A stretch of 64,000 bases of DNA, taken from positions 1 through 64,000 of the IMG/VR virus record IMGVR_UViG_3300020198_000009; one strand, 5' to 3'. The translations under genes and the position numbers were made by a program. The notes beneath the pieces were generated by a model. The model was not told where the DNA came from, searched no databases, and saw only the letters and a list, made by a program, of their open reading frames with translations. Source of the DNA: a virus. Position 1 is the stretch's first letter. Every line of letters starts with the position of its first letter. Shown one piece after another: positions 9,641 through 63,635 of this stretch.

Positions 9641-9662
9641 GTGGACCTCCTTTCGACCTTAG

Positions 9663-9740
9663 TGGAACCACCGGGACTCGAACCCGGCTCCCTCCTGTGC
9701 GCTTTGGCTTTCGGGAGGGAGGGCACCTGCGACTGGTCCC
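9663..9740 (-). ncRNA. tRNA-like element 2, alanine-type acceptor stem, no anticodon arm
   Basis: Read on the minus strand it starts GGGACCA and ends TGGTTCC-A, a 7-bp acceptor stem whose third pair is G-U and whose next unpaired base is A. A canonical T arm precedes the 3' strand: CCGGG-TTCGAGT-CCCGG. Between them, instead of D and anticodon arms, lies a long CTCCCTCC/GGAGGGAG stem with a large loop. A G3-U70 pair plus A73 is the known alanyl-tRNA synthetase identity set and works on minihelices; charging here is inferred. CCA is not encoded. It begins one base after element 1. Confidence 0.6.
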
Positions 9741-9741
9741 A

Positions 9742-9806
9742 TGGTGGAGCCGGCGGGTACTGACCCCGCGTGCCAGGCTTGCGCCCGGTCGACCCTTTAC
9801 GGCCCC
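9742..9806 (-). ncRNA. tRNA-like element 1, tmRNA-end-like, alanine-type acceptor with encoded CCA
   Basis: Minus-strand sequence starting GGGGCCG and ending CGGCTCC-A-CCA: a 7-bp acceptor stem with a G3-U70 pair, A73 and encoded CCA. The T arm is GCGGG-GTCAGTA-CCCGC. Between acceptor and T arm are an unpaired TAAAGGGTCGA and a 6-bp CCGGGC/GCCTGG stem capped by a GCAA tetraloop. The 5' GGGTCGACCGGG and 3' end resemble the tRNA-like domain of tmRNA (GGxTTCGACxGGG and CCCGCxxGCTCCACCA), but there is no messenger domain and total length is only 65. The phage-type -10 box at 9812-9817 would place the transcript start at or near its first base. Confidence 0.6.
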
Positions 9807-23874: not shown

Positions 23875-25989
23875 ATGTGGCCCGAGAGCACCCGCGGCGA
23901 CACCTGGGAGAGCACGGCGCTCTTCTCGCGCTCGGCCTTCCAGCGAACCATGCTGGCCGAGAGCCAGTTCCAGATGTTCGAGCTGCTCAATCTGCCGCGC
24001 TCGCTGAAGGACGGCTTCCGCTGGGCTCACTACGCGTTCTCGACCAACGACACGGTCAACCCGGCCATCGAGAAGCTGGCCGAGTACCCCATCACCGAGT
24101 GGTTGTTCACACCCGAGCTCGACATCGATCCCACCGACAAGAACTACCAGCAGAACCTCAAGAGCCGCGAGGCGGCCGTCAAGAGCTGGCGTGAACTGTT
24201 CAACATCCAGATCCAGGCTAAAACCTTCGCCATCAGTCGCGCGATGGATTTCCTGCTCTACGGCAACAGTTTCGTCAGCGTCTACCAGCCATTTGATCGC
24301 ATCCTGGTCTGCGGCCGCAAGGGCTGCCGCGAGCAGGTCCTGATCCAGAAGGCCGACTACGAGTGGGACAGGGCTCGACTGGAATTCAAGCTCAAGTGCA
24401 AGAAATGCAGTCATCGCGGCTTTGCCAAGGTCATCGACCGGCCGGTACGCGACTGGCGGCGCATCAATCTCATCCACTTCTATCCGGGCAACATCGACAT
24501 CGACTTCGATCCCTACTCGGGCGAGCGGCAATACTACTACCACATCCCCCAGGAAGAGGCCGACAAGCTGCGCGAGGGTAACAAGCTCAAGCTCCAGTTC
24601 ACGCCCTGGGAAATCATCCAAGCCGTCAAGATTGGCGGGCGTGGGCGCTCGGCCAGCCCCAAGATCCGGTTGCACAAGCACAACGTCTTCCACCTGGTCC
24701 GCCAGGGGCCGTCGCGGCCCGGAACCGAGAGCCCCTGGGGGGCCTCGACGGTCACGCCGGTGTTGCGCAGCCTCCTGTACCTGAACATGATGCGCCGGGC
24801 GCAGACCAGTTTGCTCATGGATCATGTCATCCCCTTCCGCTGGATCTTCCCGGCGCACGATACCGGCCCGCAGAGCACCATCGGGGCCGTGGACCTGGGG
24901 TCGTGGTCCCGGCGCATGAAGGGCGAGATCGAGAAGTGGAAGCGCGATCCGCTCTACATCATGATCGCGCCGGTCGCCGTCGGACAGGGACAGATGGGCG
25001 GAGACGGCAAGGCGCTGATGCTCTTCCCGGAGATGGACCAGGTCAGGCTCGACATCACCAGCGGCCTCAACGTCCCCCAAGAGTTCATTCGTGGCGGTTT
25101 GCAGTACACCGGCAGCTCGGTTTCCCTGCGCATGCTCGAAAACAGCCTCCTGAACATGGTCGAGCAGGTCGAGAAGTGCTTCAACTGGGTGGCCGGCCGC
25201 ATCAGCCAGATAACCGGCCTGGCCGCCATGAACGTCTCGCTCAAGCGCTTCAAGATGGCCGACGACGTCCAGATGCGCCAGCTCGCCGTGACGATGTGGC
25301 AATTGCGGGCGATCTCCGGCCAGGCGCTGGGGCAGATCATGGACTTCGACTACCTGTCCGAGATGCGCCAGCGCAATGCCGAGGACGTCGACGCGGCCGT
25401 CGCGACCGCCCGGGCCCAGGCCGAGGCTGCCGCCAAGCTCATGAGTCTCCAATTCCTGCTCCAGAACATCCTGCCCCCCGAGGCCCAGGCGACGGTCAAC
25501 CAGGCCGACCCCATGGCCGTCGATCAGGTCTACCAGGGCATCCGCCAGATGAAGCCCATGGACCAGGCCTTCGCTATCGGCCAGATAGTCCAGCAGAACC
25601 CCGAGATGGCCCGCATGCTCCAACAAAAAGCCATGTCCGACACCGGTAACTGGGCGTCGCAGTTCCAGGCCCTGGCTGCGATGAACCCCCAGCAGCAGCA
25701 GGACTACATGGCCCAGCTCAAGGCAAACAGTCCCATCATGGCCATGCTGATGGCCAACCTGGCCCGGCAGTTCGGCCTCGACAACCTCATCGGCGGCCAG
25801 GATCCCACCGGAGCCAAGGCCCAAGCCCAACCCGGCCAGCCGGCCATGCTACCCTCGGTGCAGGCCCAGCTGATGCCGCAAGGCCCCGCCTTACCGCCGG
25901 GGATGGGCGGACCACCGGCCACGCCAGGAGTCGAACCGCCCATGCCAGAGCAGAAGCCGCCGCGCCGCCAGGGCGGCAGCCCCATGTAG
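23875..25989 (+). CDS. Portal protein
   Basis: 704 residues. A helical N-terminal wing with AIEKLAEYPITEWLF, a crown/stem region containing LNVPQEFIRGGLQYTGSSVS near residue 400 (the segment after which portals form the long stem helices) and a Gln/Pro/Met-rich C-terminal tail are typical of portals of large myophages. An unusual insert near residues 148-185 carries two Cys pairs (CGRKGC and CKKC), likely a zinc-binding loop. Portals form the dodecameric DNA gateway of the head; terminase is encoded elsewhere, at 50161. Confidence 0.75.
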   Translation: MWPESTRGDTWESTALFSRSAFQRTMLAESQFQMFELLNLPRSLKDGFRWAHYAFSTNDTVNPAIEKLAEYPITEWLFTPELDIDPTDKNYQQNLKSREAAVKSWRELFNIQIQAKTFAISRAMDFLLYGNSFVSVYQPFDRILVCGRKGCREQVLIQKADYEWDRARLEFKLKCKKCSHRGFAKVIDRPVRDWRRINLIHFYPGNIDIDFDPYSGERQYYYHIPQEEADKLREGNKLKLQFTPWEIIQAVKIGGRGRSASPKIRLHKHNVFHLVRQGPSRPGTESPWGASTVTPVLRSLLYLNMMRRAQTSLLMDHVIPFRWIFPAHDTGPQSTIGAVDLGSWSRRMKGEIEKWKRDPLYIMIAPVAVGQGQMGGDGKALMLFPEMDQVRLDITSGLNVPQEFIRGGLQYTGSSVSLRMLENSLLNMVEQVEKCFNWVAGRISQITGLAAMNVSLKRFKMADDVQMRQLAVTMWQLRAISGQALGQIMDFDYLSEMRQRNAEDVDAAVATARAQAEAAAKLMSLQFLLQNILPPEAQATVNQADPMAVDQVYQGIRQMKPMDQAFAIGQIVQQNPEMARMLQQKAMSDTGNWASQFQALAAMNPQQQQDYMAQLKANSPIMAMLMANLARQFGLDNLIGGQDPTGAKAQAQPGQPAMLPSVQAQLMPQGPALPPGMGGPPATPGVEPPMPEQKPPRRQGGSPM

Positions 25990-33249: not shown

Positions 33250-34365
33250 TCAGGCCAGATGACCCAGGTCGGGCCGGTACTTCTCGATGATGGCGCGAAA
33301 ACGCGTCCTGGTGCGATCTATCAGCTTCTTGATGGCCGCCGGAGTCTTGCCCACCTCCAGCCCGAAACCCCGAGATCCAGCGGTCGCGTCCAGCCCGTCG
33401 GGGGTCGCAACGATTTCCGAGACCTCGCCGGCGATGTCGCGCTCGTCGAGGGGCACGGTGTGGTGATAGAGTCCGTGGAATGCCCCGAAGACGCTGCCCT
33501 CCATCGCTGACAGGTGGCTGACCAGCTGATTGAGCGATTCGACCGTCTCGTCGCTGACCAGGTACTCGACCAGATCCGAGCCGATGGGCAGATCGGTGAC
33601 CTGGGCGTAGCCGGTGTCCTCCTTCTGACTGTCGGGGGCATGGCTCACATCGGTCGGGTGAATCGACAATGCCCCGCCCAGCAGTGCCTGAATGTGAATG
33701 GCCTTGGTGGTGCCGAGCATGCGCAACTCGTCATGGAGGGCCGCGGCGCTCTCGGGATCCGGGGCCGAGGTCACCACGACGGCATTTTCTGGGATATCGT
33801 CCTCGGGGCCTATCAACAGCAGCTTGATTTCAGTGGGTTCCGGTTCTTTTTTCAGTTTTTCCGGCTGACCTTCCGGATCTTCCGGGTTTTCCAGGAATTC
33901 CGTACGACTGGGCACGAGCTTGCGGGTCCTGGCCTTCTTGGCGACCGTCACGCGCACGACCTTCCATGGGAGATCCGGGGTGAAGGTCTCGCAGGCGTGC
34001 CGGTTGAGGATCTTCTTGAGCTTCATGATGTCCTGGAAGGGCACCTTGGCGGCATAGCCCATCTCCGAGAGGTACTTGACGATTTCCTTGCGGACATGCC
34101 AACCGGCAAACGTCAGCAACCGGTAGCCCTGGGACATGTCGAAATGCCGGATTCCATGGAGGAGGCCCAGGATGGCCGACTGCTCCAGGTCCGCATGCTC
34201 GACCCAGGTCGGGGCCGTGAAGCGGTTGATCATCGTGGCGACAAAGGGCCGATGCGCCTCGATGAGCTCCTGGACGGCCCACTTGGCTGCCCGCGCATCG
34301 GGCCCCTGGGCAACGGCCAGCAGTTCGTACTCGTGCTTGGCCGTGATGACCTTGTGCGGTTTCAA
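33250..34365 (-). CDS. Phage sigma-70-family factor
   Basis: 371 residues from a TTG that overlaps the upstream stop as TTGA, with GGAAAG upstream. Residues about 28-110 match sigma region 2: LIEAHRPFVATMINRF, EHADLEQSAILGLLHGIRHF then TFAGWHVRKEIVKYL. After a long charged linker, the C-terminus has LDERDIAGEVSEIV and GKTPAAIKKLIDRTRTRFRA, consistent with region 4 (the -35-binding helix-turn-helix). It would direct core polymerase to phage promoters. Its partner could be host RNA polymerase or the phage beta/beta-prime protein at 59346. The acidic linker with Pro/Glu (about 150-200) is unusual. Confidence 0.8.
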   Translation of the reverse strand: MKPHKVITAKHEYELLAVAQGPDARAAKWAVQELIEAHRPFVATMINRFTAPTWVEHADLEQSAILGLLHGIRHFDMSQGYRLLTFAGWHVRKEIVKYLSEMGYAAKVPFQDIMKLKKILNRHACETFTPDLPWKVVRVTVAKKARTRKLVPSRTEFLENPEDPEGQPEKLKKEPEPTEIKLLLIGPEDDIPENAVVVTSAPDPESAAALHDELRMLGTTKAIHIQALLGGALSIHPTDVSHAPDSQKEDTGYAQVTDLPIGSDLVEYLVSDETVESLNQLVSHLSAMEGSVFGAFHGLYHHTVPLDERDIAGEVSEIVATPDGLDATAGSRGFGLEVGKTPAAIKKLIDRTRTRFRAIIEKYRPDLGHLA

Positions 34366-34790
34366 GCAGCGGGACTCTTTCCGGCCTTGGCGGCCTCGTA
34401 GGCACGATCGCAACCCAGCGGCAACCCGACGTCATGCCCATGGTGGTAGCCGATCTGGGGATCGCGCCGGTAGCCGACCGCCGCCCGGGCCGGTCGCCAG
34501 GCCTCGCCCCCGAACGGCGACTGCTTGGGATAGCACAAGGTGTAGAGCACGGCCCAGAACGCTTCGAGCTGGTAGTCCGCCGGCACCTGGGGCAAGAAGC
34601 GCACGTGCTCGACCGTCATGCCGCCAGGCGCGAAGGCGAAGACGAGCTCCTCGATGGCAAAACCGCGATCCGCCAGGTCCTTGAGGGCGCATTCGATACC
34701 GATGCAAGCGTCGGCGAACTGGCCACCCCCTTCGCGCAACGCGGCCGCAATGGCCTCTTGGAGGTAGTCGGCTGCGTCGGATTCGGTCAC
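34362..34790 (-). CDS. Unknown protein coupled to the sigma factor (142 aa)
   Basis: GTG at 34790 with GGAG eight bases upstream; begins MTESDAADYLQEAIAAALRE. Helical N-terminal half, then FAFAPGGMTVEHVRFLPQVP and a His-rich segment (YRRDPQIGYHHGHDVGLP). Its stop shares TTGA with the sigma factor start, so the two are made together; an anti-sigma or sigma-partner role is possible but purely from position. Confidence 0.55.
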   Translation of the reverse strand: MTESDAADYLQEAIAAALREGGGQFADACIGIECALKDLADRGFAIEELVFAFAPGGMTVEHVRFLPQVPADYQLEAFWAVLYTLCYPKQSPFGGEAWRPARAAVGYRRDPQIGYHHGHDVGLPLGCDRAYEAAKAGKSPAA

Positions 34791-43910: not shown

Positions 43911-44128
43911 ACGCCGGTGGCGGACTCGATGCCGCCCGCCAGCGCCCGCACGGCCGGCGGGAAGAGTGCGTAGTCGACGACCGCTCCGGCCCCCTGACCG
44001 ATCAGACCGGCCGGCCCGCGGCCCGGGTAGGTGAAGAAACCCACCAGCGCAGGGATGGCCGACGGATGCCGCTCATCGCCTTCGGCCGCGGCCTTGGCGC
44101 GGGCCATGTACAGCTCGTAGGGCGTCAT
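43889..44128 (-). CDS. Tag-family protein, MTPYELY start (79 aa)
   Basis: Start MTPYELYMARAKAAAEGDER is fixed by ATGA overlap with the protease-like gene. After the tag and a charged stretch there is a Gly/Pro/Ala-rich hydrophobic segment (LVGFFTYPGRGPAGLIGQGA) that could insert in or touch a membrane. The last codons contain the operator of the next promoter. No further function. Confidence 0.6.
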   Translation of the reverse strand: MTPYELYMARAKAAAEGDERHPSAIPALVGFFTYPGRGPAGLIGQGAGAVVDYALFPPAVRALAGGIESATGVGNTTTL

Positions 44129-45477
44129 GGCAGGGCGATCCCCAGGCTGCCGTACCCGCACGATCCGGTCGCCGCCTTGTAGAGCCCGTGGTAGATCCCG
44201 AGCCATCGGGCCTGCTCGGCCGAGACCGCCGCGGGTTCTGGATGACGCGCGCCGCTCTTGAGCAATCGGGCCGACAGATGCGGCTCGCGGTAGCTACGGG
44301 CCCAGGCATAGGGTTCTAGCCAGCCGTGGGCCAGGGCAATCTTGGTCCGGTCGGTATCGAGCAGGGGGGTCTGGGCCAGCTTGGCAATGCCCGGCACGTC
44401 GCAATCCGGCCGGGGCGGCGTCGAGACGACCAGTTCGTCGAGATCCAGTGCTGCCACCTTGGCCGCGGGCCCGAAGACCACCCCGAGCAGCTCCGAGGGC
44501 CGCAGGGCCATCCCGAGCTGCTCGCAAGCCGCCAGCGCGTTGCCCAGGCCCAAGCCGGCCAACTTGTCCAGCACGAAGCCCGGCAGGGCCGGCTCGCGAT
44601 CGTAGAGCCCCACCAGGTGGTCCAGGGCGATGTCGGCCGGCAGGTCGAGATCCTTCTTGACGATGGTGGCGTCCTTGGAGTTGCGACCTGTATTCTCAGA
44701 AGCGACCTTCATGAGCAGCATGGCCTCGGGCGCGGCCGGACTCTCGACGAGGCTCTCGTCGAAAAAGTCCGGGAAATCATTTATCATCACGACAGCAACG
44801 CCGTCGGGACGTATCTGACGCAGGGCATAGTCGGGAGAGCCTGGGCGCAGATGACCGCAGTATTGCCGGCGTGTCGGGGCCAGGTTGCCGCAGAGCGGGC
44901 AGCGATCGTAAGGCACACGCGCCGCCATTGATGTTGCGACGTTAAGTCCTCGGTCTGCCCGCTCGGCCCACTTGCGCCCCCGGGTGCGATCGAAGCTGAT
45001 GAGGTTCTCGACCCGGTGCATGCGCGGGTTCCAGAAGGTGTCAAGCACGTTACCCAGGGCCGTCCTGGGGTCCTTGTTGCGGTGCTCCTCGAAGACGTGG
45101 GCCTTGCGGAAGGTCGTATAGCCCCAGGTCTTGGGCAGGCGATGGGCGTAGCGATCGAAGAAGCTCATGGGCACGTCGGCTGGTGGCCGGCCCAGGAGGG
45201 CATTCTCGGGCCACGCGTCGCCGTTGTTGTTGGGCCCCCAGTGCTCGGTCGACCCCAGGCCGATGACCAGCAGGTAGCACTTGCCCTTCTCGGGCACCAC
45301 CTCGCTGGCGGCCTTGACGGCTTCTTCGGCCGCGGCGGTCTTGACCTTGCCATGGCCCAGGCGATCGTCGACCTCCAGGCGGCCACGGCACTCGACCAGG
45401 GGCACGCTGTGCTGCTCGCCCTCGCCCAGGTAGTCGTGCTCGCCGGGCGTGACGAACTTGACGAGATCGTCGCTCAT
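44125..45477 (-). CDS. Prohead-protease-like protein with zinc motif (450 aa)
   Basis: Contains GLGSTEHWGPNNNGDAWPEN near residue 72, then FRKAHVFEEHRNKDPRTALG with His residues placed as in phage head maturation proteases, HRVENLISFDR and SMAARVPYDRCPLCGNLAPT followed by YCGHL: a C-x2-C / C-x2-H zinc site I associate with large-phage prohead proteases. The long C-terminal half is helical. The gene order protease-scaffold-decoration-capsid supports the call. Catalytic residues are not certain by eye. Confidence 0.55.
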   Translation of the reverse strand: MSDDLVKFVTPGEHDYLGEGEQHSVPLVECRGRLEVDDRLGHGKVKTAAAEEAVKAASEVVPEKGKCYLLVIGLGSTEHWGPNNNGDAWPENALLGRPPADVPMSFFDRYAHRLPKTWGYTTFRKAHVFEEHRNKDPRTALGNVLDTFWNPRMHRVENLISFDRTRGRKWAERADRGLNVATSMAARVPYDRCPLCGNLAPTRRQYCGHLRPGSPDYALRQIRPDGVAVVMINDFPDFFDESLVESPAAPEAMLLMKVASENTGRNSKDATIVKKDLDLPADIALDHLVGLYDREPALPGFVLDKLAGLGLGNALAACEQLGMALRPSELLGVVFGPAAKVAALDLDELVVSTPPRPDCDVPGIAKLAQTPLLDTDRTKIALAHGWLEPYAWARSYREPHLSARLLKSGARHPEPAAVSAEQARWLGIYHGLYKAATGSCGYGSLGIALP

Positions 45478-47510
45478 CGTTGGGAGCCAACCGGCCCGAG
45501 GGCAATCGGCTTTGGCGTGGGGCGACCCAATGGTCCCCCCATCCCCCAGTCGGCCCGCGTCGGCCGGGCATAGTGCTGCGGCAACAGCGCCGCTAAATCG
45601 CCGCGGGCGCGAAGTGACGCCCTGCCATCTGCCATGATGGCCATTCCTTCATCCCATCCCAAGGGCGCCCCGGGAAGGGAGGGGTGTGGCATGCGGCCGC
45701 TATTGAAGAGCCTGGTAATTCGCTCGGCCTTGGGGTTGATCTGGGCCTTGGCGGCCATTACCTGGCTGACAGCCCGCTGGCGAGCCGCGGGGTAGACGCG
45801 ATCCAATGCCCGAAATTCGTCGGCCTTCCTGGCGTAACCGACAGCATGTCCTACCCCCCGAAGGGCACTGTCCAGGAAGCCGGCCTCCTTGACCTGCTCG
45901 CGCGCAAACGCAAACCCCTCCCAGTAGAGCCTTCCGAGTTCAGCCTGCTTGACGACCCGGGCCGGAGAATCGGCGGGCACGGGGCGACCTTTCAACTTGG
46001 CCAGGGCGGCCGCCACGGCTTCGAGGCCGCGGCCCAAGTGGTCCTTGCCGATGATTTCCTGGGCGATTGGCCAGAGCGGATCGTCGGGACCGACCGGTCG
46101 CAAGGTACCGGGCGGCAGGAAGCCGGCGGCACGCTTGACGCGGCGGCCCGACCAGGCCAGGCGGTTCATCACCTGGGGTGATTGTGCAGCGCTGGCCTGC
46201 GCGGAAGCCATAGCCGCGGCGAACGTATCACGGTTCGTGCGATCCAGGGCGATCGGCAACCTGGCCGACCAGCGACCTCCGGCGTCGCCATGCAAGGCGT
46301 CGATGTGCGCGAAGGCATCGCTCAAAATGGGTCGACGAAACGTTCCATCGCCCGCCTCGGCAGCTGGCACGACTTGGGGTGTCTTTTGCCAGGCGCGCGT
46401 CAGCAAATCACGACTCTGTTGCGTGCGCACGGCGGCTTGTTGGGCCTTCTCGGCCCGCCGTGCCGCCTGGGTGGTGGGCATGTACTTGGCGATATCTCGC
46501 GCCGCCTCGGCCCCGAAAAGATGCTCATTAGCCCGGGCGCCCATCTGATGCACCAGCGTGTCCTGGCCCATCTGCATGAGTTTTGACCCCTGGGGGCCAC
46601 TCGCGAACTCGAATACTTTCTCGAAAATCTGCGCCTGGCGTTGCGGATCGTTGCGCGCCGTGAGGCCATGGACCACCCCGAAGCCGTTCGCGGTGGTAAG
46701 GGCATGCATTTCGGTCGCCTTGCGCGCCGCGAGTAGATCAAGGACGGGCTCATGAGGAACGGGTTGCCCGGTCCGTAACTCGTCGCCCCGGATTTGCAGC
46801 CGATTAGCGACAGCATGGGGATCGACTCGCCGCAACGACCGAGACAAGCCCTCGACACCCTCGGCCCGATAAGGCGCGATGGCCTGCCCGATGCGATGCG
46901 CCCGCAGCAGCTGGGCCGGAGTGTCGGCCGTACGCAGGATTTGCGCCAAGCGCGTCGCGGCCACCTTCTCGGGCACCCCGGCGCCGAACTTGGGTGGCAG
47001 ATGCTCCAGCAGATTGCCGGCCGGACGAAAAAGGCCAGCGGCTGGTCCATGGCTCGCCGGCAACGGCTCGAACAACGGCATGCCAGCCGAAAGGCGCCCC
47101 TTCTGCCGCATGTCTCTCGGATCGGCGGCGCCGAGCCCTAACTTCCTGGGGGGCGCCAAGCGCAGCGCGCCGTCCGGCAATCTCTCCACCAGCGGCGTGT
47201 TGAATTGCCGCATTTCATTCCGCTGACGCGCGTAAGACGCCTCCAGGGCCTCCTCGATGTCATCGGCCGCGCTCTTGTACCCCAGCTGCATGAGCAAGGC
47301 GTCCCGGTGCATGTTGGCCCGGTTGAACCCCGAGGCCGCCCCTACCAATCCGCCGATTGCCGATCCCGCCCCCATGGCCTCCAGGTTCCGCCTGAAGACC
47401 AACCCCGCCAGAGCCCCCAAACCCAGGCCCTTGACCGAGTCCTTGGCCACCTCACCGCCGGTGTAGGCAATGGGGTTGGTCAGGGGTTCGTTGGGGTCGC
47501 CGTAGCTCAT
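45474..47510 (-). CDS. Large helical internal-virion-type protein (678 aa)
   Basis: N-terminal GGEVAKDSVKGLGLGALAGL and AGSAIGGLVGAASGFNRANM are Gly/Ala-rich hydrophobic helices of the kind seen in injected or membrane-penetrating virion proteins. The rest is long basic/Ala helices (RREAEKAQQAAVRTQQ-type). ATGA overlap with the protease-like gene. Ejection or internal-core role is inferred from composition and context; no catalytic motif found. Confidence 0.5.
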   Translation of the reverse strand: MSYGDPNEPLTNPIAYTGGEVAKDSVKGLGLGALAGLVFRRNLEAMGAGSAIGGLVGAASGFNRANMHRDALLMQLGYKSAADDIEEALEASYARQRNEMRQFNTPLVERLPDGALRLAPPRKLGLGAADPRDMRQKGRLSAGMPLFEPLPASHGPAAGLFRPAGNLLEHLPPKFGAGVPEKVAATRLAQILRTADTPAQLLRAHRIGQAIAPYRAEGVEGLSRSLRRVDPHAVANRLQIRGDELRTGQPVPHEPVLDLLAARKATEMHALTTANGFGVVHGLTARNDPQRQAQIFEKVFEFASGPQGSKLMQMGQDTLVHQMGARANEHLFGAEAARDIAKYMPTTQAARRAEKAQQAAVRTQQSRDLLTRAWQKTPQVVPAAEAGDGTFRRPILSDAFAHIDALHGDAGGRWSARLPIALDRTNRDTFAAAMASAQASAAQSPQVMNRLAWSGRRVKRAAGFLPPGTLRPVGPDDPLWPIAQEIIGKDHLGRGLEAVAAALAKLKGRPVPADSPARVVKQAELGRLYWEGFAFAREQVKEAGFLDSALRGVGHAVGYARKADEFRALDRVYPAARQRAVSQVMAAKAQINPKAERITRLFNSGRMPHPSLPGAPLGWDEGMAIMADGRASLRARGDLAALLPQHYARPTRADWGMGGPLGRPTPKPIALGPVGSQR

Positions 47511-48330: not shown

Positions 48331-48858
48331 CGGCCTCCCATAGGCGTGAGCCAATGAGAGCCCGTGGTGGATGAAATTGATGGCATTGGACTCGGCCCCA
48401 CGCGCCGCGGCGTCGATGGTGCCCTGGGCACTGATGAGATCCTTGAAGGCCCCGTGATCGACCCCGTCGTAGGCGATGAAGCGCTTGATCAGGTTGCCGA
48501 CCACCAGCGGGTTCTCGGCGGTGCTCGGCGAGCCCTGGGCGATCGAGTCGAAGTAGAGCCGGACCTTCTCGGGCTTCTCGCGCTGGAGCTCGGGATAGAC
48601 TTGAAGCATCTTGGAGTAGGACTGCTGGAGCTTGATCGAATCCGACAGCATCCCCACGCCCTTGAGGGCCAGCGCCCCGCCGGCCAGCATGCCGGCATGC
48701 TGGGCCAGCGCCCCGAAGCCCAGGGGCTTGGGCCGGGTGGCATACTCCAGACCCTTGAACGCCAGGCCCCCCAGAGTGCCGATGGCACCAACCGCGGCAT
48801 TGGTTCGCCCCATCCAGTCGGGCCTGAAGATGCGCTGAGCATCGGTATACCAGGGCAT
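48328..48858 (-). CDS. Hydrophobic-region protein, unknown (176 aa)
   Basis: Start MPWYTDAQRIFRPDWMGRTN with GGAGGGG five bases upstream. Two Gly/Ala-rich hydrophobic segments (AAVGAIGTLGGLAFKGLEYA and AGMLAGGALALKGVGML) suggest membrane contact; the C-terminal half is helical and soluble. It follows the 252-residue gene by one base. A virion membrane-interacting role is possible. Confidence 0.5.
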   Translation of the reverse strand: MPWYTDAQRIFRPDWMGRTNAAVGAIGTLGGLAFKGLEYATRPKPLGFGALAQHAGMLAGGALALKGVGMLSDSIKLQQSYSKMLQVYPELQREKPEKVRLYFDSIAQGSPSTAENPLVVGNLIKRFIAYDGVDHGAFKDLISAQGTIDAAARGAESNAINFIHHGLSLAHAYGRP

Positions 48859-48859
48859 A

Positions 48860-49618
48860 TTACCCCTCCTGGAGCTGGACCAGATGGTCCCGGACATTGC
48901 GGCGCCGCGCCCGCAGATCGATCACCGCGGCCATCCGGGCGGCTGCGGTCTTGGCGAGTTCGACCAGGTCGGTGGCGTGCCGCTGGGTCTCGGGCACCAG
49001 GATGCGCAGTTGCCCGCGAGTAAACGCGTGCTTCTCGATCGCCGTAGCCTCGAAGACCCGATCGACCAGCTGGCGCTCGAAAGGAGAGAGTGTCTCGAAC
49101 TGCTGCTGGTAGACCCCCAGCTTCTCGATGCCGAGCTCCTTGGCGCGAGCCACCCGGGACTCCATGGTGGCGAGCAGGTCGCGAATTTCGGCCATGGCCA
49201 CCTTGATCTGCGAATCGAGCTGGCTACGACGGGCGGCGAGTTTTTGCAGGAGTGCCGGCGTGTCGTCGAAGGCGATGCCGCCCGGGCGGGCGCTGGAGTA
49301 CCCAGACCCCGAGCCGAGCGTCGTACGCACGGCCAGGCCGGGACTTGCCGACGCGGCCTTGACGGCCTGTTTTTCGCCATGCATGGCCAGTAGCACCCTT
49401 TCGGCGTAAGCGGGCGGGAACTCGTCGCACTTGTCGAGCTCCATGGCCTTCTTGAAGGCATGGCGGTTCACCAGCTGCGTCAGGCTCCGGACGGTATGGT
49501 CGTTGTAGCCGAGCGCCGAGGCGTGCTTGGCGATGGCCTCATGGATATCGGCGCCCTGGCGGACCGACTCGACGATTTGCTGGGCCTCGGCATCCAGCTT
49601 GGGCTTGATGTTTCCCAC
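48860..49618 (-). CDS. Helical protein with a leaderless-type start (252 aa)
   Basis: GTG start (MGNIKPKLDAEAQQIVESVR) lies only seven bases from a TATAAT box, so the transcript would begin at or next to the start codon with no ribosome site; the next Met is about 60 residues in, too far into a continuous helix. Long charged helices (RRSQLDSQIKVAMAEIRDLL). No family recognised. Confidence 0.5.
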   Translation of the reverse strand: MGNIKPKLDAEAQQIVESVRQGADIHEAIAKHASALGYNDHTVRSLTQLVNRHAFKKAMELDKCDEFPPAYAERVLLAMHGEKQAVKAASASPGLAVRTTLGSGSGYSSARPGGIAFDDTPALLQKLAARRSQLDSQIKVAMAEIRDLLATMESRVARAKELGIEKLGVYQQQFETLSPFERQLVDRVFEATAIEKHAFTRGQLRILVPETQRHATDLVELAKTAAARMAAVIDLRARRRNVRDHLVQLQEG

Positions 49619-49732
49619 GCTGGGATTATAGATGTCGCCCGCCGAGCACCGCGGAGGACGGTTCCGGCCCAGCGCAAGAGGCGCCCGAGGACCCCCGGCC
49701 GCAGCCGGAGGCCGAGGAGCCAGCCCGGGAGC
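49619..49732 (-). promoter_or_regulatory. Spacer with -10 box of the leaderless-type gene
   Basis: TATAAT on the minus strand at 49625-49630 ends seven bases before the GTG at 49618. The remaining 100 bases are GC-rich with no gene and no palindromic operator copy. Confidence 0.5.
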
Positions 49733-50160: not shown

Positions 50161-53058
50161 ATGTCGAGCGAGACCTTCATCGAGGACGGCGAAACCGGAC
50201 GCCGCGTCATCGTCACGGACCGAAAGAAGATTGCCGAGGCGGTACTGCATCTCAAGGGCAGGCCCCTCAAGCTCGACAACTACCGGCCCTTCCATGCCAT
50301 CTACCGCACTTCGGCACAAAACCTTGTGATACAGGCGGGACGGCAAGTGTCAAAATGTGGCACCGGCGAGAACATGATCCCCATGTTCAACGGCATGCCG
50401 GCCAGGCTCGGCGCCCTCCGGCCAGGCGATAAGGTTTTGTCTCTGGCATCTGGCTACCGCCTGGTGACTGGACAGGTGAGCGACACCATCCAAGCCGGCA
50501 GGAAGCCATGCGTGCGCCTGACGACCCGCTTGGGGCACGAGCTGGAGGTCGCCCGGAGTCATCCGATTCGCGGTCTGTTCGACTACTATCCGGCGGGCGA
50601 ACTCAAGATTGGCGACCGAGTGGCGGCTGTGCGTCGCGGCGGCTCCTTCACAGACCTGAACCCCATAACGCCGACCGAGGCCATGGTGCTCGCCTACATG
50701 ATTGGCGACGGCAGCGCTCAGGGTAAGCAGAACTTCGGCTTCACGAACTCCAAACCGGAGATCTTGGCCGAGTTCCGGTCATGCTGCGCCATGCTGGGCC
50801 AGGTCGCGCCACGAGAGTACGAACGCAAGGGCTCCTTGACGCTTCGGCTCTCGCTGGCATCGGATGCCCCGGTTCGTCGTCTCCTGGAACATCAGGGTAT
50901 CTATGGCAAGACCTCGGAAACGAAGTTCATCCCAGCCGAGGTATTCGACCTCGATCGCGAGCGCACGGCGCTCTTCCTGAATCGACTCTGGGCGTGCGAT
51001 GGCCATGCCAAGCAACTCAATCCTGGGAAATATGAAATCCACTACGCCACAATCTCGAAAAAACTGGCCCATGGCGTTCAAGCGCTCCTGTGGAAGTTCG
51101 GAATCCCGGCCTCGGTATCCCGGAGTCAACCGAAAGTCTATATAGGCACCAACAAATTCGCCTACAAGGTGCGAATTGAAACCCAAGAAGGTATCCGCCG
51201 CTTCTTGACCGAGATCGGCGCTTTCATGAAGAGCGAGAGCATCCCACTTCCGGCAGCCGAGAGTAACAATAACCGCGATACCATCCCGCAGGACGTGCAA
51301 AAGCTCATCACGGCACTCTACGAGCGCGCCCTGGCCCGGGATGCCCTGTGCGGACCCGGGCGTGCGGGGCGGCCTAGGGCTAGCATCACGGATCACGGCC
51401 TGCGCGCCACCCTAAAATACCCCCCCTCGCCACGAAAGATCGCCCAATACGTCGAGTTCTTTCAGCAGATCGGGCTCGGAGACGAACCGGAAACCATTAC
51501 CCTCGAATCACTGATCAACAACGACGTGATCTGGGATAAGATTATTGCGATCGAAGACATCGGCATGCAGGATTGTTACGACATCGAAGTCGATGTTCTG
51601 CACAACTACATCCTGGGCGGCGTTGTCACCCATAACTCGACCACCCTGGGAAACTGGTCCATCACCGACGCCATCGGCGTGCCCCATTCCGAGCAGTTGA
51701 TCGTCCTGCCCTCGATCATGCAGATGCGCCGCTTCTCATCGGACAAAGTGGGAAAAATCGTCGCCACCAGCCCGCTTGTCAAGAAATGGTTCGTCGACCA
51801 CACCTGCGAGCGCGCCATCTACAAACGCAGCTTCCTCAACGGCTCGACCATGGAATTCGCCGCCATGACCCAGATGGAATCCATACGCGGCGGCGCCAAG
51901 AACCGGGTGTCGGAAGACGAAGTGCAGGACATGGACCTGGACGCGCTTGCCATAGTGGAGGAGGTGCTAAGCGGACAAGCAAGTGACAAGATAGCAATTG
52001 CCCGCACCGGCACGGCCAAGACCGTCGGCAACACGCTGGATGTGACGTTCAAGAAATCGAGCCAGTGCGAATGGATAGTGCCATGCCCAAGCGGTCACCA
52101 CAACGTCCCGAGCCCGGACAACATCGGCGATCGGGGCTTCATTTGCAAGAAATGCCGCAGCCTCTGCGACGTGCGCGGTGGCTACTGGCGCTCCATGGCG
52201 GGCCTCGACGCCGAGTGGATGGGCTTCCACATCCCCCAGATCATCCTGCCGCTCCATACCGAGGACCAAGGAAACTGGCGCAAGCTCCTGCGAAAGCGCA
52301 ACGGCGGCGTCAGCCCGGTCGTCTTTCTCAACGAGGTCATGGGCATTCCTGCCGGCTCGGGCATCACCGCCCTGACCGAAGAGGACCTGATCAAGTGCTG
52401 CGAACCGGTCTACGAGATAGACCCCCACTACTTCCGCGGCAAGGACCACGACATCGCCGTGGTATTCGGTACCTGCGACTGGGGCCTGATGGCCATCAAG
52501 AGCTTCACGATTGCCAGCATCTGGGGGATCACCAAGGCCGGGCGCATCAAGCTGCTGTTTGCCTATCGCTTCCTGGACCCCGATCCCTACAAGCAGGTCG
52601 AGCAGATCATCCGGCTCTTCACGAACGCGGGGGTCGAGCTGGTCGGCTGCGACTGGGGCATGGGCATGATCCAGAGCCGCATCATCGAGGAGCAGATGCC
52701 CCAGGTCCCGGTCCATCGCTTTATGTACGTCGGCGAGCAGCGGGCCCTGATGAGCTGGTACAAGGAGGGCAAGCTCTGGCGGGTGAACCGTACCCAGGCC
52801 ATGACCGAAGCTTTCGTCTGGATGAAGCGCCAGCGTTTCTGGTTCCCGAACTGGTCATGGTTCAAGGAATACATCGCGCCGGATATATTATGTATTTACG
52901 AAGAGGCAGTAAATCAAGTCACATTCAAGAACGATGTCATACGGTACGCACACCCCGATTCCCAGGCCGATGACGCCACTCACACCTGCGTCTACGCCCT
53001 GCTGCTCCTTTGGATCCTTTATGACCGCGGCCGTACGGAGTTCCATCTGGCAGGCTAG
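50161..53058 (+). CDS. terL: Terminase large subunit with an intein (TerL precursor)
   Basis: 965-residue precursor: 538 residues of terminase interrupted by a 427-residue intein. The flanking exteins rejoin as GRQVSK-STTLGNW, a terminase Walker A. Later motifs include a Walker B-like SEDEVQDMD, and nuclease-domain aspartates in CDWGLMAIKSF, GCDWGMGM and DSQADDATH. TerL cuts concatemers and pumps DNA through the portal. Lone rightward gene between two leftward blocks, controlled by the operator at 50137. Activity depends on splicing, because the intein splits the ATP-binding loop. Confidence 0.9.
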   Translation: MSSETFIEDGETGRRVIVTDRKKIAEAVLHLKGRPLKLDNYRPFHAIYRTSAQNLVIQAGRQVSKCGTGENMIPMFNGMPARLGALRPGDKVLSLASGYRLVTGQVSDTIQAGRKPCVRLTTRLGHELEVARSHPIRGLFDYYPAGELKIGDRVAAVRRGGSFTDLNPITPTEAMVLAYMIGDGSAQGKQNFGFTNSKPEILAEFRSCCAMLGQVAPREYERKGSLTLRLSLASDAPVRRLLEHQGIYGKTSETKFIPAEVFDLDRERTALFLNRLWACDGHAKQLNPGKYEIHYATISKKLAHGVQALLWKFGIPASVSRSQPKVYIGTNKFAYKVRIETQEGIRRFLTEIGAFMKSESIPLPAAESNNNRDTIPQDVQKLITALYERALARDALCGPGRAGRPRASITDHGLRATLKYPPSPRKIAQYVEFFQQIGLGDEPETITLESLINNDVIWDKIIAIEDIGMQDCYDIEVDVLHNYILGGVVTHNSTTLGNWSITDAIGVPHSEQLIVLPSIMQMRRFSSDKVGKIVATSPLVKKWFVDHTCERAIYKRSFLNGSTMEFAAMTQMESIRGGAKNRVSEDEVQDMDLDALAIVEEVLSGQASDKIAIARTGTAKTVGNTLDVTFKKSSQCEWIVPCPSGHHNVPSPDNIGDRGFICKKCRSLCDVRGGYWRSMAGLDAEWMGFHIPQIILPLHTEDQGNWRKLLRKRNGGVSPVVFLNEVMGIPAGSGITALTEEDLIKCCEPVYEIDPHYFRGKDHDIAVVFGTCDWGLMAIKSFTIASIWGITKAGRIKLLFAYRFLDPDPYKQVEQIIRLFTNAGVELVGCDWGMGMIQSRIIEEQMPQVPVHRFMYVGEQRALMSWYKEGKLWRVNRTQAMTEAFVWMKRQRFWFPNWSWFKEYIAPDILCIYEEAVNQVTFKNDVIRYAHPDSQADDATHTCVYALLLLWILYDRGRTEFHLAG
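50356..51636 (+). mobile_element. Intein with LAGLIDADG-type homing endonuclease in the TerL P-loop
   Basis: Begins with Cys (CGTGENMIPMFNG, block A), has a block-B-like ARSHPIRG, two LAGLIDADG-like helices (AYMIGDGSAQG near residue 180 of the intein-containing precursor and LNRLWACDGHAK near residue 275), and ends VDVLHNYILGGVVTHN before Ser. These are the N- and C-terminal splicing motifs with an Asn/Ser junction. All expected residues appear intact, so protein splicing and homing are predicted. Exact insertion is between Lys and Ser of the Walker A. Confidence 0.85.
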
Positions 53059-59345: not shown

Positions 59346-62300
59346 ATGCGCGCGCCAGCCGAGACCCACCAGGCGATGACCCGGGCGCTGGAAGCCGGCC
59401 TCAAGCAGGTATTCCCGGTTGCGGCCGGCAACCGCATGCTCGATCTGGTCGCGGTCCATGCCCCCGACCTGCCGGATCCCCATGACTGGAACGGCCAGAA
59501 GGACGCGGTCATGGATGGTAGGACCTGGGGCAGCCCACTGCGCGCCACCCTGGCGCTCAAGGATGCACAGGGCAAGGTGCTCGACCAGAAGGCCGTGAGG
59601 CTGGCCACCATACCGGCTCCGACCAATCGCCACACGTTCATCGTCGATGGCCGGGAGTACCAGGTCAACTACCAGCGCCGGCTGAAACCCGGGATCTACA
59701 CCAAGGTCGATCGCACCGGCGCACCGGTGGCCGACTTCAACCTCGGACATGGCCGCAACTTCGCCGTCACGCTCGACCCGGAACGGAACCAGTTCCATCT
59801 GCGCCTGGGCAACGCCCACATCCCCCTGGGCCATGTCCTGGCTGGCCTGCGCGAATCGGGAGATCCCTCCCTGGGGCTGGGCAAGGCCTTCGAGCACCCG
59901 GCGGGCCCGGAGGAGACCGAGCGCGCCTTGCGGGAATTCTATGTCCAGACCCACCGCAACAAACCCATCCCTGCCGACCTGGCAGGCCTCAAGGCCGCCG
60001 TCCGCACCTGGTTCGACCACGCTACGCTCTCGCCCGAGACCACCCGGCTCACGGTCGGCGAATCCTACGGCCATGTCACCGACCAGGCGTTGCGGACTGC
60101 CGCGAGGCATGTCCTGGAAATCCACCGCGGCGATCGTCATCCGACCCACAAGGATCAGCTGGCTTACCAGGAGATCCACGGGGTCGAGGACTTCCTCAAG
60201 GAACGCCTGGTCAAGAACAAGCTGGGGCTGCACGGCCGGTTGCGCCAGACCCTCGATCGGGCCGACAAGCTCGCGGACCTCAACCTACCGGCGACCTTCG
60301 GGCCGTCAGTGCACCACTTCTTCACCCAGAGCTCGCTCTCGAACCATCCCATGCAGGTCAACCCGCTGGAAATGGCCGAGAACGCCCACAAGATCACCTC
60401 GATGGGCGAAGGCGGCATCGGAGACGCCAACGCCATCCCGATCGAGGTCAGGAACATCCATCCATCCACGTTGGGCTTCATCGACCCGGTCCGCACGCCC
60501 GACAACGCCCATGCCGGCGTGGATGTCCGCACCACCGTGCGCTCCCGCAAGGTCGGGAACCAGCTGGCGATTCCCGTCCGCGATGCCAGGACCGGCCGGG
60601 AGGTCTTCAAGACCCCTGGCGAGCTGTTCGACACGCACGTCGCCCACGACAGGGAGCCCGCCGAGAACGGCGTGGTACGCGCCATCCACCAGGGCCATGT
60701 CGTCTGGGCAAAGCCAGAGCAGATAGACTACCACCTCCCGACCGAGCACCAGTTCACGGTCAGTACGGCCCTGGTGCCCTTCATCCCCAACAGCCACGCC
60801 CACCGGGTGGCCATGGGCGCCAAGATGCTGGGCCAAGCCGTCAGTCTCGACGACCGCGAGGCGCCGATCGTGCGGACCGCCCATGCAAATACCGCGATCT
60901 CGGGCCTGTTGCCGCGCAGCCCGGTCGACGGGACCGTGGCCACGATCGTGAACGGAGCCATCAAGATCCAGGACAAGGACGGCAAGAGTCACCTCGCGCA
61001 CTATCCGCACGAGTTTCCGCTCAACGGCGGCTCGTTCCTGCATGCAGACCTGCATGTCAAGCCCGGCGACCGGGTCTCGCAAGGGCAGGTCCTCGGCGAC
61101 TTGAACTTCACCCGCGACGGCAACCTTGCACTTGGAAAAAATTTAACCGTTGCTTATCTGCCGTATCGTGGCCATAACTTCGAAGACGGCCTGGTGGTTA
61201 CCGAACAGGGTGCCCGCAAGCTTACCAGCAGCCACCTGCATACCGAAGTCGCCCTCAAGGACGGCCGCAACGTCTACGATCTCAAGCAGTTCAAGGGCCA
61301 CTTCCCCTCGACCTACACCCACGAGCAGCTCGGCAAACTCGATCCCCATGGCGTGGTACGCGTGGGCCAGGAGGTCGTCGAGGGCGACCCGCTGGTCGCG
61401 GGCCTGCGCAAGCGCGTGGTCGATCCCGAGCAGCTCATCCTGGGTAAGGCCCACAAGGGCCTCATGGAGCCCTACCGGGACGCCAGCCTGACCTGGGACA
61501 AGCCCTACGCCGGCAAGATCACGGCCGTATCCAAGACCGGCGACCAAATAAAGGTGACCATCCAGGCCAAGGCGCCGCTCCAGTTGGCCGACAAAATCTC
61601 TAATTTGTACGGCGCGAAGGGCGTCGTGACAACGATCATCCCCGACCACGAGGCGCCCCGGACAGCCAGCGGTGAGATCCCCGACGTCATCCAGAACTCG
61701 GCGGGCCTGATCAGCCGCATGAACAACGGCCAGCTCTACCACCTGACCGCCGCCAAGGCCGTCAAGGCCCTGGGGCTCGATCACATGGTCTTCCCGCAGT
61801 TCCTGGGCCAGGACGCCCACGAAGTGGTCTCGCGCCTGGCCGAAAAGGCCGGCATCGCCCCGGAAGAAGAGCTGTTCGACCCCAAGACCAATCGCAGTCT
61901 GGGTAAGGTGATGATCGGCCCGCAGTACATGCTCAAGCTCTTCAAACAAGCCGAGACCGGCTTCTCGGCGCGGGCCGGCGGGCGTTATGACGTCGATCTG
62001 CGACCGGCCAAGGGCGGCGAGGAGGGGGCCAAGTCCATCGGCTACCTCGACGTCTTCGGGTTGCTCAGTCACGGCAGCCGTGGCCTGTTGCGCCAGGCGG
62101 CGACCACCAATGCCGAATTCAACCCCGAGGTCTTGCAAGCCATATGGCGGGGCCAGCCCCTGCCGCCCCCCAGGCCCACGTTTGCCTGGCGGAAGTTCGA
62201 GGCCATGTTGCGCGGGGCGGGCGTCAACGTCACCCAGGACGGCCACAAGCTGGTCATGCTGCCGATGACCGACCAGGACACCCTGCGAGTCTCGCAGGGC

Positions 62301-63635
62301 CAGATCCGCAAACCCCTGCTGGTCAACGCCAAGGAGGACCCTCGCACCGGCCTGCCCTTCCGGCCCGAAACGGGCGGTCTGTTCGATCACGAGTCCACCG
62401 GCGGCCTGGTCGGCAACAAGTGGTCGCATATCACGTTGCCCGAGCCCGTGGTGAGCCCGCTGTTCGCCCGGCCGGCCCGCATCCTGCTCGGAATGAGCCA
62501 GCAGGCTTTCGGTGAGACGATGGCCACCGAGGGCGGGGCGGGTATCGCCAAGCGCCTGGCCGGGATCGATCCGAAGACGCGCATCGCCGAACTCGGCGAG
62601 CGGCTCAAGACGACCAGCGCGGCGGCCAAGCGCGACCAGATCCACAAGCAGCTCAAGTACCTCAAGCCGCTGGCCGCCCACGGCATCAGCCCGGCCGACG
62701 CGTACGTCGTGCGCCATGTGCCGGTCATCCCTCCCGCGATGCGGCCCATCTACCCGGACGCCGACACCGGCAAGCTGGTCAACTCGGATGCCAACCTGCT
62801 CTACCAGCACCTGCTGCTCATCGGGGATCAGCTGGCCCACCACCAGCACGAGGGCGATCCCGACACCGTGCGCGAATTGCGCCTGGGGCTGCATGACGCC
62901 CTGGCCAAGGTGCAGGGCCTCGACCCGACCACTGAATCCATGGGCAAGGGCTACGAGCCGCAGGGCTTCCTCAAGCTCATCACGGGCTCGCGCGCCAAGG
63001 AAGGCTTCTTCCAGAGTAAATTGCTCTCGCGGCGCCAGGACATCGCCGGCCGCGGGGTCATCACGCCCAATCCGGCGCTGGGTATCGACGAGCTGGGCTT
63101 GCCTGAGCCGATGGCCTGGAAGCTCTACCGCAACCATGTGGTGGGTGAGTTGACCCGGGCCGGCCTGCCGCTCGAAAGTATCGCCAAGCATGTCGAAGAG
63201 CAGACACCCCTGGCGCGCAAGGCCCTGCAAGCAACCATGGCCGACAATCCGGTGATCATGACCCGGGCGCCCAGCCTGCACCGCTTCAACCTCATGGCCT
63301 TCAAGCCGCAACTGACCAGCGGCAAGCACATCGAGGTTCCAAACCTGGTCGTCAAGGGCTTTAACGCTGACTTCGACGGTGACGCGGTCAACGTCCACAT
63401 CCCCATCACCCCGGAGGCCAAGGCCGACGCCTGGCGCGTGCTGCCATCGAAGAACCTATTCTCGACGCTCAACAAGAGCCCGATGCACACGCCCAGCCAG
63501 GAGGTCACCATGGGGCTCTGGAAGCTCGGCCAGCCCAATGGTAAGGCCACCCGGACCTTCAAGAGCCGCGCCGAAGCCATCGCCGCCTACAAGAAGGGCG
63601 ACATCGGCATCGCCGACCCGATCGAAATAGGTTGA
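59346..63635 (+). CDS. Phage RNA polymerase: beta fused to the N-terminal half of beta-prime
   Basis: 1429 residues. Beta motifs in order: HHFFTQSSLSNHPMQVNPLE near residue 325, DPVRTPDNAHAG, VAYLPYRGHNFEDGLVVTE near 600, ADKISNLYGAKGVVTTIIPD near 747, and a beta C-terminus GYLDVFGLLSHGSRGLLRQ near 898. Without a stop it passes into beta-prime: LLSRRQDIAGRGVITPNPAL, NPVIMTRAPSLHRFNL and the catalytic metal-binding NADFDGD at 1340-1346, then PSQEVTMGLW, ending at residue 1429. The rest of beta-prime (bridge helix and trigger loop) is absent and must be another gene. This is the core of a phage-encoded polymerase. Confidence 0.9.
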   Translation: MRAPAETHQAMTRALEAGLKQVFPVAAGNRMLDLVAVHAPDLPDPHDWNGQKDAVMDGRTWGSPLRATLALKDAQGKVLDQKAVRLATIPAPTNRHTFIVDGREYQVNYQRRLKPGIYTKVDRTGAPVADFNLGHGRNFAVTLDPERNQFHLRLGNAHIPLGHVLAGLRESGDPSLGLGKAFEHPAGPEETERALREFYVQTHRNKPIPADLAGLKAAVRTWFDHATLSPETTRLTVGESYGHVTDQALRTAARHVLEIHRGDRHPTHKDQLAYQEIHGVEDFLKERLVKNKLGLHGRLRQTLDRADKLADLNLPATFGPSVHHFFTQSSLSNHPMQVNPLEMAENAHKITSMGEGGIGDANAIPIEVRNIHPSTLGFIDPVRTPDNAHAGVDVRTTVRSRKVGNQLAIPVRDARTGREVFKTPGELFDTHVAHDREPAENGVVRAIHQGHVVWAKPEQIDYHLPTEHQFTVSTALVPFIPNSHAHRVAMGAKMLGQAVSLDDREAPIVRTAHANTAISGLLPRSPVDGTVATIVNGAIKIQDKDGKSHLAHYPHEFPLNGGSFLHADLHVKPGDRVSQGQVLGDLNFTRDGNLALGKNLTVAYLPYRGHNFEDGLVVTEQGARKLTSSHLHTEVALKDGRNVYDLKQFKGHFPSTYTHEQLGKLDPHGVVRVGQEVVEGDPLVAGLRKRVVDPEQLILGKAHKGLMEPYRDASLTWDKPYAGKITAVSKTGDQIKVTIQAKAPLQLADKISNLYGAKGVVTTIIPDHEAPRTASGEIPDVIQNSAGLISRMNNGQLYHLTAAKAVKALGLDHMVFPQFLGQDAHEVVSRLAEKAGIAPEEELFDPKTNRSLGKVMIGPQYMLKLFKQAETGFSARAGGRYDVDLRPAKGGEEGAKSIGYLDVFGLLSHGSRGLLRQAATTNAEFNPEVLQAIWRGQPLPPPRPTFAWRKFEAMLRGAGVNVTQDGHKLVMLPMTDQDTLRVSQGQIRKPLLVNAKEDPRTGLPFRPETGGLFDHESTGGLVGNKWSHITLPEPVVSPLFARPARILLGMSQQAFGETMATEGGAGIAKRLAGIDPKTRIAELGERLKTTSAAAKRDQIHKQLKYLKPLAAHGISPADAYVVRHVPVIPPAMRPIYPDADTGKLVNSDANLLYQHLLLIGDQLAHHQHEGDPDTVRELRLGLHDALAKVQGLDPTTESMGKGYEPQGFLKLITGSRAKEGFFQSKLLSRRQDIAGRGVITPNPALGIDELGLPEPMAWKLYRNHVVGELTRAGLPLESIAKHVEEQTPLARKALQATMADNPVIMTRAPSLHRFNLMAFKPQLTSGKHIEVPNLVVKGFNADFDGDAVNVHIPITPEAKADAWRVLPSKNLFSTLNKSPMHTPSQEVTMGLWKLGQPNGKATRTFKSRAEAIAAYKKGDIGIADPIEIG

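What the first reader, a model, noticed from the sequence alone, without database searches (positions are those of the whole stretch)
59346..63635. Single-chain RNA polymerase: beta fused to half of beta-prime, ending after the catalytic loop
Beta motifs are followed without a stop by beta-prime motifs up to NADFDGD and PSQEVTMGLW, then the protein stops. Known large-phage multisubunit polymerases split beta and beta-prime into separate pieces; beta/beta-prime fusions are known in a few bacteria, but there the full beta-prime is present. A fusion that crosses the natural boundary and then splits inside beta-prime, before the bridge helix and trigger loop, would be a distinct architecture. The remaining piece must be elsewhere in this genome.
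Basis: partly seen in the sequence, partly recalled or inferred. Interest (0 to 1): 0.8.

Follow-up and report, generated by a model that had tools for sequence, protein, structure and literature searches.

The report
Fused-then-split phage RNA polymerase
This bacterial virus carries its own cell-type RNA polymerase in an unusual form, with one large chain joining the beta subunit to the first half of beta-prime and the rest of beta-prime encoded 14 kb further on, and relatives suggest it arose by splitting a one-piece enzyme that many uncultured viruses still have.

Summary
In detail: 59346-63635 is one open 1429-aa frame carrying beta and then beta-prime up to 83 residues past NADFDGD. The missing half exists: a 616-aa gene at 77719-79569 of the same 80.4-kb virus record, outside the window, starts where the first stops and carries bridge helix and trigger loop. 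It is not an assembly error: Salmonella phage Arash and Vibrio phages D69, D148 and D181 have the same pair with the same break, as do dozens of IMG/VR contigs. The bigger surprise is a large related set (117 loci) with beta and all of beta-prime in one ~2080-aa chain. In a 48-row tree the four layouts need only three changes. Best reading: one fusion made a single-chain enzyme, one later fission after the catalytic barrel made the two-chain form, a second fission a three-chain form. The record has a sigma factor but no detectable alpha or omega. Published mass spectrometry puts both Arash chains in the virion, so a packaged early-transcription enzyme is likely here, by homology. The beta-prime cut alone is known (cyanobacteria, phiKZ-type phages); the combination and the single-chain clade were not found described in the papers searched. 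New variant of a known kind.

The parts
59346..63635 (+). Chain 1: beta fused to the N-terminal half of beta-prime, 1429 aa. Its partner, chain 2 (beta-prime C half, 616 aa, bridge helix, Zn site, trigger loop), lies OUTSIDE the window at 77719-79569 (+) of the 80,429-base record (window = record bases 1-64000)
   Evidence: open frame; Pfam and PHROGs domains; end-to-end relatives in Arash and Vibrio phages. Chain 2:
59346..62234 (+). beta part of chain 1, about residues 1-963
   Evidence: Rpb2 domains; best solved-structure matches are bacterial beta chains
62235..63632 (+). beta-prime N half of chain 1, about residues 964-1429 (clamp, catalytic barrel); boundary approximate
   Evidence: Rpb1_2; beta-prime chains in PDB matched from residue 1054; junction comparison
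61593..61619 (+). the two conserved catalytic lysines of beta, K750 and K758
   Evidence: alignment columns conserved in phages and cells
63363..63383 (+). catalytic NADFDGD motif of beta-prime, residues 1340-1346
   Evidence: translation, conserved columns
63633..63635 (+). TGA stop at the beta-prime break (...DPIEIG*)
   Evidence: DNA read; same break in relatives
33250..34413 (-). sigma-70-like factor, 387 aa, probable promoter-recognition partner (inferred)
   Evidence: Sigma70_r2 over cut-off; homologous to Arash gp196

Best explanation
This is the large chain of a two-chain, cellular-type (two-barrel) phage RNA polymerase. Chain 1 (59346-63635) is beta joined directly to the clamp, catalytic barrel and NADFDGD loop of beta-prime. 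Chain 2 (77719-79569 of the record) is the rest of beta-prime with bridge helix, Zn site and trigger loop. The two chains would assemble across a cut hairpin, without alpha or omega, and use a phage sigma factor to find phage promoters. In phage Arash both chains are major virion proteins, so the enzyme is probably packaged and delivered with the DNA to start early transcription. The layout arose in two steps: one beta/beta-prime fusion gave a single-chain enzyme that many relatives keep, then one fission after the catalytic barrel gave the two-chain form. Shown: the ORFs, motifs, common break point, clade structure, sigma gene, no detectable alpha/omega. From a paper: virion presence in Arash. 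Inferred: assembly, promoter use, packaging in this phage.
For: Domains and motifs of both halves. Same pair and same break in Arash, D69, D148, D181 and in dozens of IMG/VR contigs. 117 loci with one chain, seamless at the break. Tree: four layouts need 3 changes against a shuffled mean of 23.3, 4 against 38.7 in the larger set. Sigma present, alpha and omega not found. AlphaFold models match cellular beta and beta-prime folds; the break falls on a hairpin turn. Arash virion proteomics lists gp206 first (3516 spectra) and gp216 with 1210 (PMC10585845). The gene lies next to portal and structural genes in relatives.
Against: No activity of any member has been tested. In this genome both genes have moved away from portal and structural genes, so packaging rests on homology. 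The record is probably a fragment, so further subunits may be missing. The window row is a long branch; the AU test does not reject its grouping with the single-chain set (p 0.245), so an independent fission at the same site is possible. In the split clade the trigger-helix arginine is replaced, mostly by Ser or Gly (labels corrected by one column).
Confidence: 0.8

Rival explanations
1. Assembly or sequencing error: a false stop at 63633 or a false join splits what is really one beta-prime gene, or joins two genes into one.
For: The record is a metagenomic contig; the halves are 14 kb apart, farther than in any relative measured (605-4977 bases).
Against: Isolates and many independent contigs show the same fusion and break; the second gene has its own start and ribosome-binding-like site; base composition is even.
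Confidence: 0.03
2. The polymerase is a non-virion enzyme made after infection for middle or late genes, not a packaged one.
For: Here the two genes lie away from the portal and structural genes, unlike in relatives; a sigma gene is present. The Arash authors themselves note that abundant enzymes could be carried over into particles.
Against: The orthologues in Arash are among the most detected virion proteins.
Confidence: 0.25
3. The split is reversed by protein or RNA splicing (trans-splicing), so one full beta-prime is made after all.
For: Inteins and homing genes are common in this polymerase family.
Against: No Rfam intron; the halves stop and start cleanly with no intein parts visible at the break; Arash proteomics lists the two as separate proteins.
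Confidence: 0.03
4. Split forms are ancestral in this clade and the single-chain forms were made by re-fusion; or the window's lineage split independently.
For: The deepest viral fork is unresolved; AU tests leave room.
Against: Needs one more event than fusion followed by fission; all split forms share one break point and one clade with support 99.
Confidence: 0.2

Closest known systems
Salmonella phage Arash gp206 + gp216; Vibrio phages D69, D148, D181
   Same: Same fusion, same break, two chains; 35%/32% and 29% identity. In Arash both chains are in the virion (PMC10585845).
   Different: Annotated only as 'beta' and 'beta-prime' or hypothetical; genes 0.6-4.7 kb apart and near structural genes, here 14 kb apart and displaced.
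phiKZ-type jumbo phage vRNAP and nvRNAP
   Same: Viral two-barrel enzymes without alpha/omega; beta-prime cut after the catalytic barrel (PMC7598289, PMC8287921).
   Different: Their beta is itself split and not fused to beta-prime, and they have no recognised sigma factor; here beta is intact, fused, and a sigma gene is present.
Cyanobacterial and plastid RpoC1/RpoC2
   Same: beta-prime cut close by, between catalytic barrel and bridge helix.
   Different: beta is a separate chain; RpoC2 starts about 15-20 positions later; cellular enzyme with alpha.
Yeast virus-like element polymerase (pGKL2 ORF6 + ORF7)
   Same: Fusion of beta with part of beta-prime plus a small chain with the beta-prime C end (PMC6211774).
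   Different: Cut later, between conserved regions a15 and a16, and most of the clamp is missing; related to poxvirus enzymes in that paper.
rpoB-rpoC fusions of Helicobacter and Wolbachia (from general knowledge)
   Same: beta joined to beta-prime in one chain.
   Different: Full beta-prime in the same chain, in a cellular enzyme; the single-chain relatives found here resemble that plan.
mReC phages (Weinheimer and Aylward 2020)
   Same: Tailed phages with recognisable cell-type beta and beta-prime forming a clade apart from cells (PMC7481178); probably the same lineage.
   Different: Main text treats beta and beta-prime as subunits and cites fusion only for crAssphage; supplement not available here.
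crAss-like phage and YonO single-chain polymerases
   Same: Both barrels in one chain; crAss-like enzyme is in the virion.
   Different: Highly divergent, related to RNA-interference polymerases according to the papers read; ours is matched readily by ordinary beta/beta-prime profiles.

Membership tests
Two-barrel (multisubunit-type) RNA polymerases | DxDGD loop in the beta-prime barrel | tested here: met
   NADFDGD
Two-barrel (multisubunit-type) RNA polymerases | two basic residues in the beta barrel | tested here: met
   K750 and K758
Two-barrel (multisubunit-type) RNA polymerases | bridge helix and trigger loop | tested here: met
   in chain 2 by alignment to solved beta-prime; trigger-loop His kept, Arg replaced
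Cellular RNA polymerase core | alpha and omega subunits | tested here: not met
   no PF01000 or PF01192 match in the record; no PF01000 in 13 viral relatives; the record may be incomplete
phiKZ-type phage polymerases | beta-prime cut after the catalytic barrel | tested here: met
phiKZ-type phage polymerases | beta split into separate chains | tested here: not met
   beta is intact in one chain
phiKZ-type phage polymerases | two enzyme sets (virion and non-virion) | tested here: inconclusive
   one set found in the record, which is probably partial
Yeast virus-like element polymerase | beta plus part of beta-prime in one chain | tested here: met
Yeast virus-like element polymerase | cut between a15 and a16, clamp mostly lost | tested here: not met
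   cut lies before the bridge helix; region between beta and NADFDGD is about 375 residues
Bacterial rpoBC fusion | complete beta-prime in the fused chain | tested here: not met
   chain 1 ends 83 residues after NADFDGD
mReC phages | viral beta/beta-prime clade apart from cells | tested here: met
   support 100
mReC phages | membership of the published set of contigs | not testable with these tools
   supplementary tables not available
Virion RNA polymerases | present inside particles | not testable with these tools
   published for Arash only (PMC10585845)

The most novel reading that the evidence does not exclude
A broad clade of tailed phages carries a one-piece, alpha-free, cellular-type RNA polymerase (beta and complete beta-prime in one ~2080-aa chain), usually encoded near the portal gene and probably packaged. 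Within it one fission after the catalytic barrel produced the two-chain enzyme seen here, close to the site used by cyanobacteria and phiKZ-type phages, and a second fission a three-chain form. The number of chains of a cellular-type polymerase is then a variable that can be studied inside one virus lineage.
Probability: 0.7. Interest if true: 0.75.

Novelty: new variant of a known kind. Interest (0 to 1): 0.65.

Why it matters
Bacterial RNA polymerase uses alpha as the platform that brings beta and beta-prime together. One viral clade here offers one-, two- and three-chain versions of the same cell-type enzyme, with recognisable motifs and, in several, a sigma factor. Two questions become directly testable: whether fusing beta to beta-prime replaces alpha-dependent assembly, and why the beta-prime break keeps falling between the catalytic barrel and the bridge helix in cyanobacteria, phiKZ-type phages and these phages. 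It also corrects annotation: Arash 'beta' is beta plus half of beta-prime, and trees that assume separate subunits may mishandle such sequences. Arash, isolated on a laboratory Salmonella strain, is a ready model.

Tried and rejected
Single-sequence scans of IMG/VR with either chain found nothing; alignments were needed. An intron or other known RNA at the break: no Rfam match. A homing gene between the halves as the cause of the split: in most relatives the intervening gene is a proline/alanine-rich or other protein, and apart from a few cases where a helicase-like gene lies there, it is not related to the genes downstream of the single-chain enzyme. AU tests under the mixture model did not finish; under LG+G4 they neither show nor reject a single-chain clade (p 0.547). 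The best plasmid hits were rpoB/rpoC pairs or unannotated matches of 26-29% identity in large records that look bacterial. Several 'phage' GenBank records with separate rpoB and rpoC (for example OR846602, AFYI01000006) look like bacterial contigs and served only as cellular outgroup. In one search the trigger-loop residue labels are one column early; the statement here is corrected for that.

Full report
Observation. The frame 59346-63635 is open for 1429 codons. Pfam places beta domains (Rpb2_3, Rpb2_6) and the beta-prime catalytic domain (Rpb1_2) in the same chain; PHROGs gives a beta family (321-949) and a beta-prime family matched only to position 538 of 1216. The chain ends ...GDIGIADPIEIG followed by TGA.

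The missing half. The window is bases 1-64000 of an 80,429-base IMG/VR virus record. The same beta-prime family continues in a second gene at 77719-79569 of the record, 616 aa, beginning MRTTVGHLLLSAGLPEG, with an AGGA-type site shortly before its ATG. Its profile matches solved beta-prime chains over bridge helix, C-terminal Zn site and trigger loop. Together the chains make a nearly complete beta plus beta-prime; the N-terminal beta-prime Zn finger appears to be absent (read from the sequence).

Not an artefact. Among 50,697 GenBank phage records, Salmonella phage Arash and Vibrio phages D69, D148 and D181 carry the same pair. Alignments run end to end at 35% and 32% identity for chain 1 and 29% for chain 2, and stop and restart at the same place. 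In D181 a homing endonuclease also interrupts the beta part (D148 shows the same pattern). Base composition is even across 60-80 kb of this record.

Survey of layouts. Profiles for beta, beta-prime N half and beta-prime C half were run on every ORF of the fetched loci. 117 loci have all three in one ORF (median 2083 aa over the 107 that are complete), 51 have the fusion plus a separate C half, 5 have three pieces with all parts in view, and 75 have separate beta and beta-prime; the last are nearly all bacterial genome contigs and serve as the cellular comparison. Counts include duplicate contigs and some truncated or intein-bearing copies, and the second viral scan used single-chain sequences as query, so proportions are not abundances. 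No isolate with the single-chain form appeared among the listed best hits in the phage collection.

Junctions. From the end of the beta profile to the start of the beta-prime profile there are 37-44 residues in all viral forms shown, so the fusion has almost no linker. At the beta-prime break the single-chain forms run on with 1-21, mostly 2-6, residues between the two profile matches (for example IITVG-GHET-TLGRL), while the split forms stop and restart there. In the AlphaFold model of the single-chain beta-prime of L018 the break falls on the turn between strands 479-482 and 485-488 (numbering from L018 residue 1001). The model of the last 1200 residues of the window chain has mean pLDDT 83 with the fusion region well predicted. 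Foldseek's best matches are cellular beta chains for that model and cellular beta-prime chains for the L018 model.

Tree. On 97 rows the layouts need 4 changes (shuffled mean 38.7, none of 200 as low). With a site-mixture model and eight cellular outgroup rows, 48 rows need 3 changes (shuffled mean 23.3); the viral sequences are one clade (100), the two- plus three-chain forms one clade (99), and the three-chain forms a clade inside it (100). The parsimonious history is one fusion, one fission, one further fission. Caveats: the deepest viral fork is unresolved; support in these quick trees is SH-aLRT only; the window row is a long branch, and holding it with the single-chain set costs 20 log units yet is not rejected by the AU test (p 0.245).

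How it probably works. No alpha or omega gene was found in the record, nor alpha in 13 viral relatives. A sigma-70 region 2 protein is encoded here (33250-34413) and in 7 of the 13 viral relatives searched, 6 of them over the family cut-off. In relatives of both kinds the polymerase gene commonly lies downstream of the portal gene and upstream of genes listed as structural in Arash. Published Arash virion proteomics ranks gp206 first (3516 spectra, 100% coverage), lists gp216 with 1210 spectra and a sigma factor gp10 with 467 (PMC10585845). Divided by length (1525 and 606 aa) that is 2.31 and 2.00 spectra per residue, compatible with equal amounts, though spectral counts are rough. I infer a packaged enzyme that starts early transcription. 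In this genome both genes have moved away from portal (23875-25989) and other structural genes, so packaging here rests on homology alone.

Comparison. The beta-prime break matches phiKZ-type and cyanobacterial enzymes (PMC7598289; the cyanobacterial RpoC2 chains start about 15-20 positions later by the profile match), but phiKZ beta is split and unfused. The yeast virus-like element enzyme has the same plan, beta plus part of beta-prime and then a small subunit, but is cut after the bridge helix and has lost most of the clamp (PMC6211774). The mReC phages of Weinheimer and Aylward are probably this lineage, but the parts of the main text read do not describe fusion within it (PMC7481178). Jumbo-phage and P23-45 papers do not describe this layout in the passages read. 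The literature library holds only open-licence PMC papers, so an earlier description elsewhere cannot be excluded.

Verdict. Real, conserved and correctly spotted; a new variant of a known kind, with the single-chain relatives as the more surprising finding.

Noticed in passing
44128-, 56423+, 57885+, 58507+, 58937+; record 65290-, 68159+, 69409+, 69899+, 79621+, 80399+; also MDPYTAYQ at 43402-, 48261-: Many otherwise different proteins start with the same N-terminal tag, MTPYELYMxKxA or close to it. Relatives have their own repeated tags (L050 MITASELGxL six times, L052 MFDLLGFWTT five, L096/L097 MNKYLEKIA three). A packaging or targeting tag is a guess.
   Followed up: partly
50161-53058: The large terminase gene carries an intein with a LAGLIDADG homing domain.
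   Followed up: partly
L036, L059, L089, L110, L117 (and probably L114): Insertions of about 350-500 aa inside the polymerase of relatives match LAGLIDADG homing domains and, in some, intein splicing domains (L114 seen only as an insertion).
   Followed up: partly
L090:6173-11680: The polymerase frame of this relative is broken only by nine in-frame TGA codons, which suggests a phage that reads TGA as an amino acid.
   Followed up: partly
record 74056-75072 (L005:10056-11072): A response-regulator plus GGDEF (diguanylate cyclase) gene in a phage record.
   Followed up: no
record 65548-67731 (L005:1548-3731): A 727-aa protein with a weak protein-kinase match below the Pfam cut-off.
   Followed up: no
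9662-9806 (-): ARAGORN predicts a tmRNA gene with a 31-residue tag, unusually long; not confirmed by Rfam.
   Followed up: no
chain 2 of split forms: In the split clade the trigger-helix arginine is replaced, mostly by Ser or Gly, with Lys next to the conserved His; most single-chain forms keep Lys or Arg (labels corrected by one column).
   Followed up: partly
23875-25989 (+), 44128-45648 (-), 48331-49732 (-): Portal and other structural genes that sit beside the polymerase in relatives are 10-33 kb away from it here, so this genome is rearranged.
   Followed up: partly
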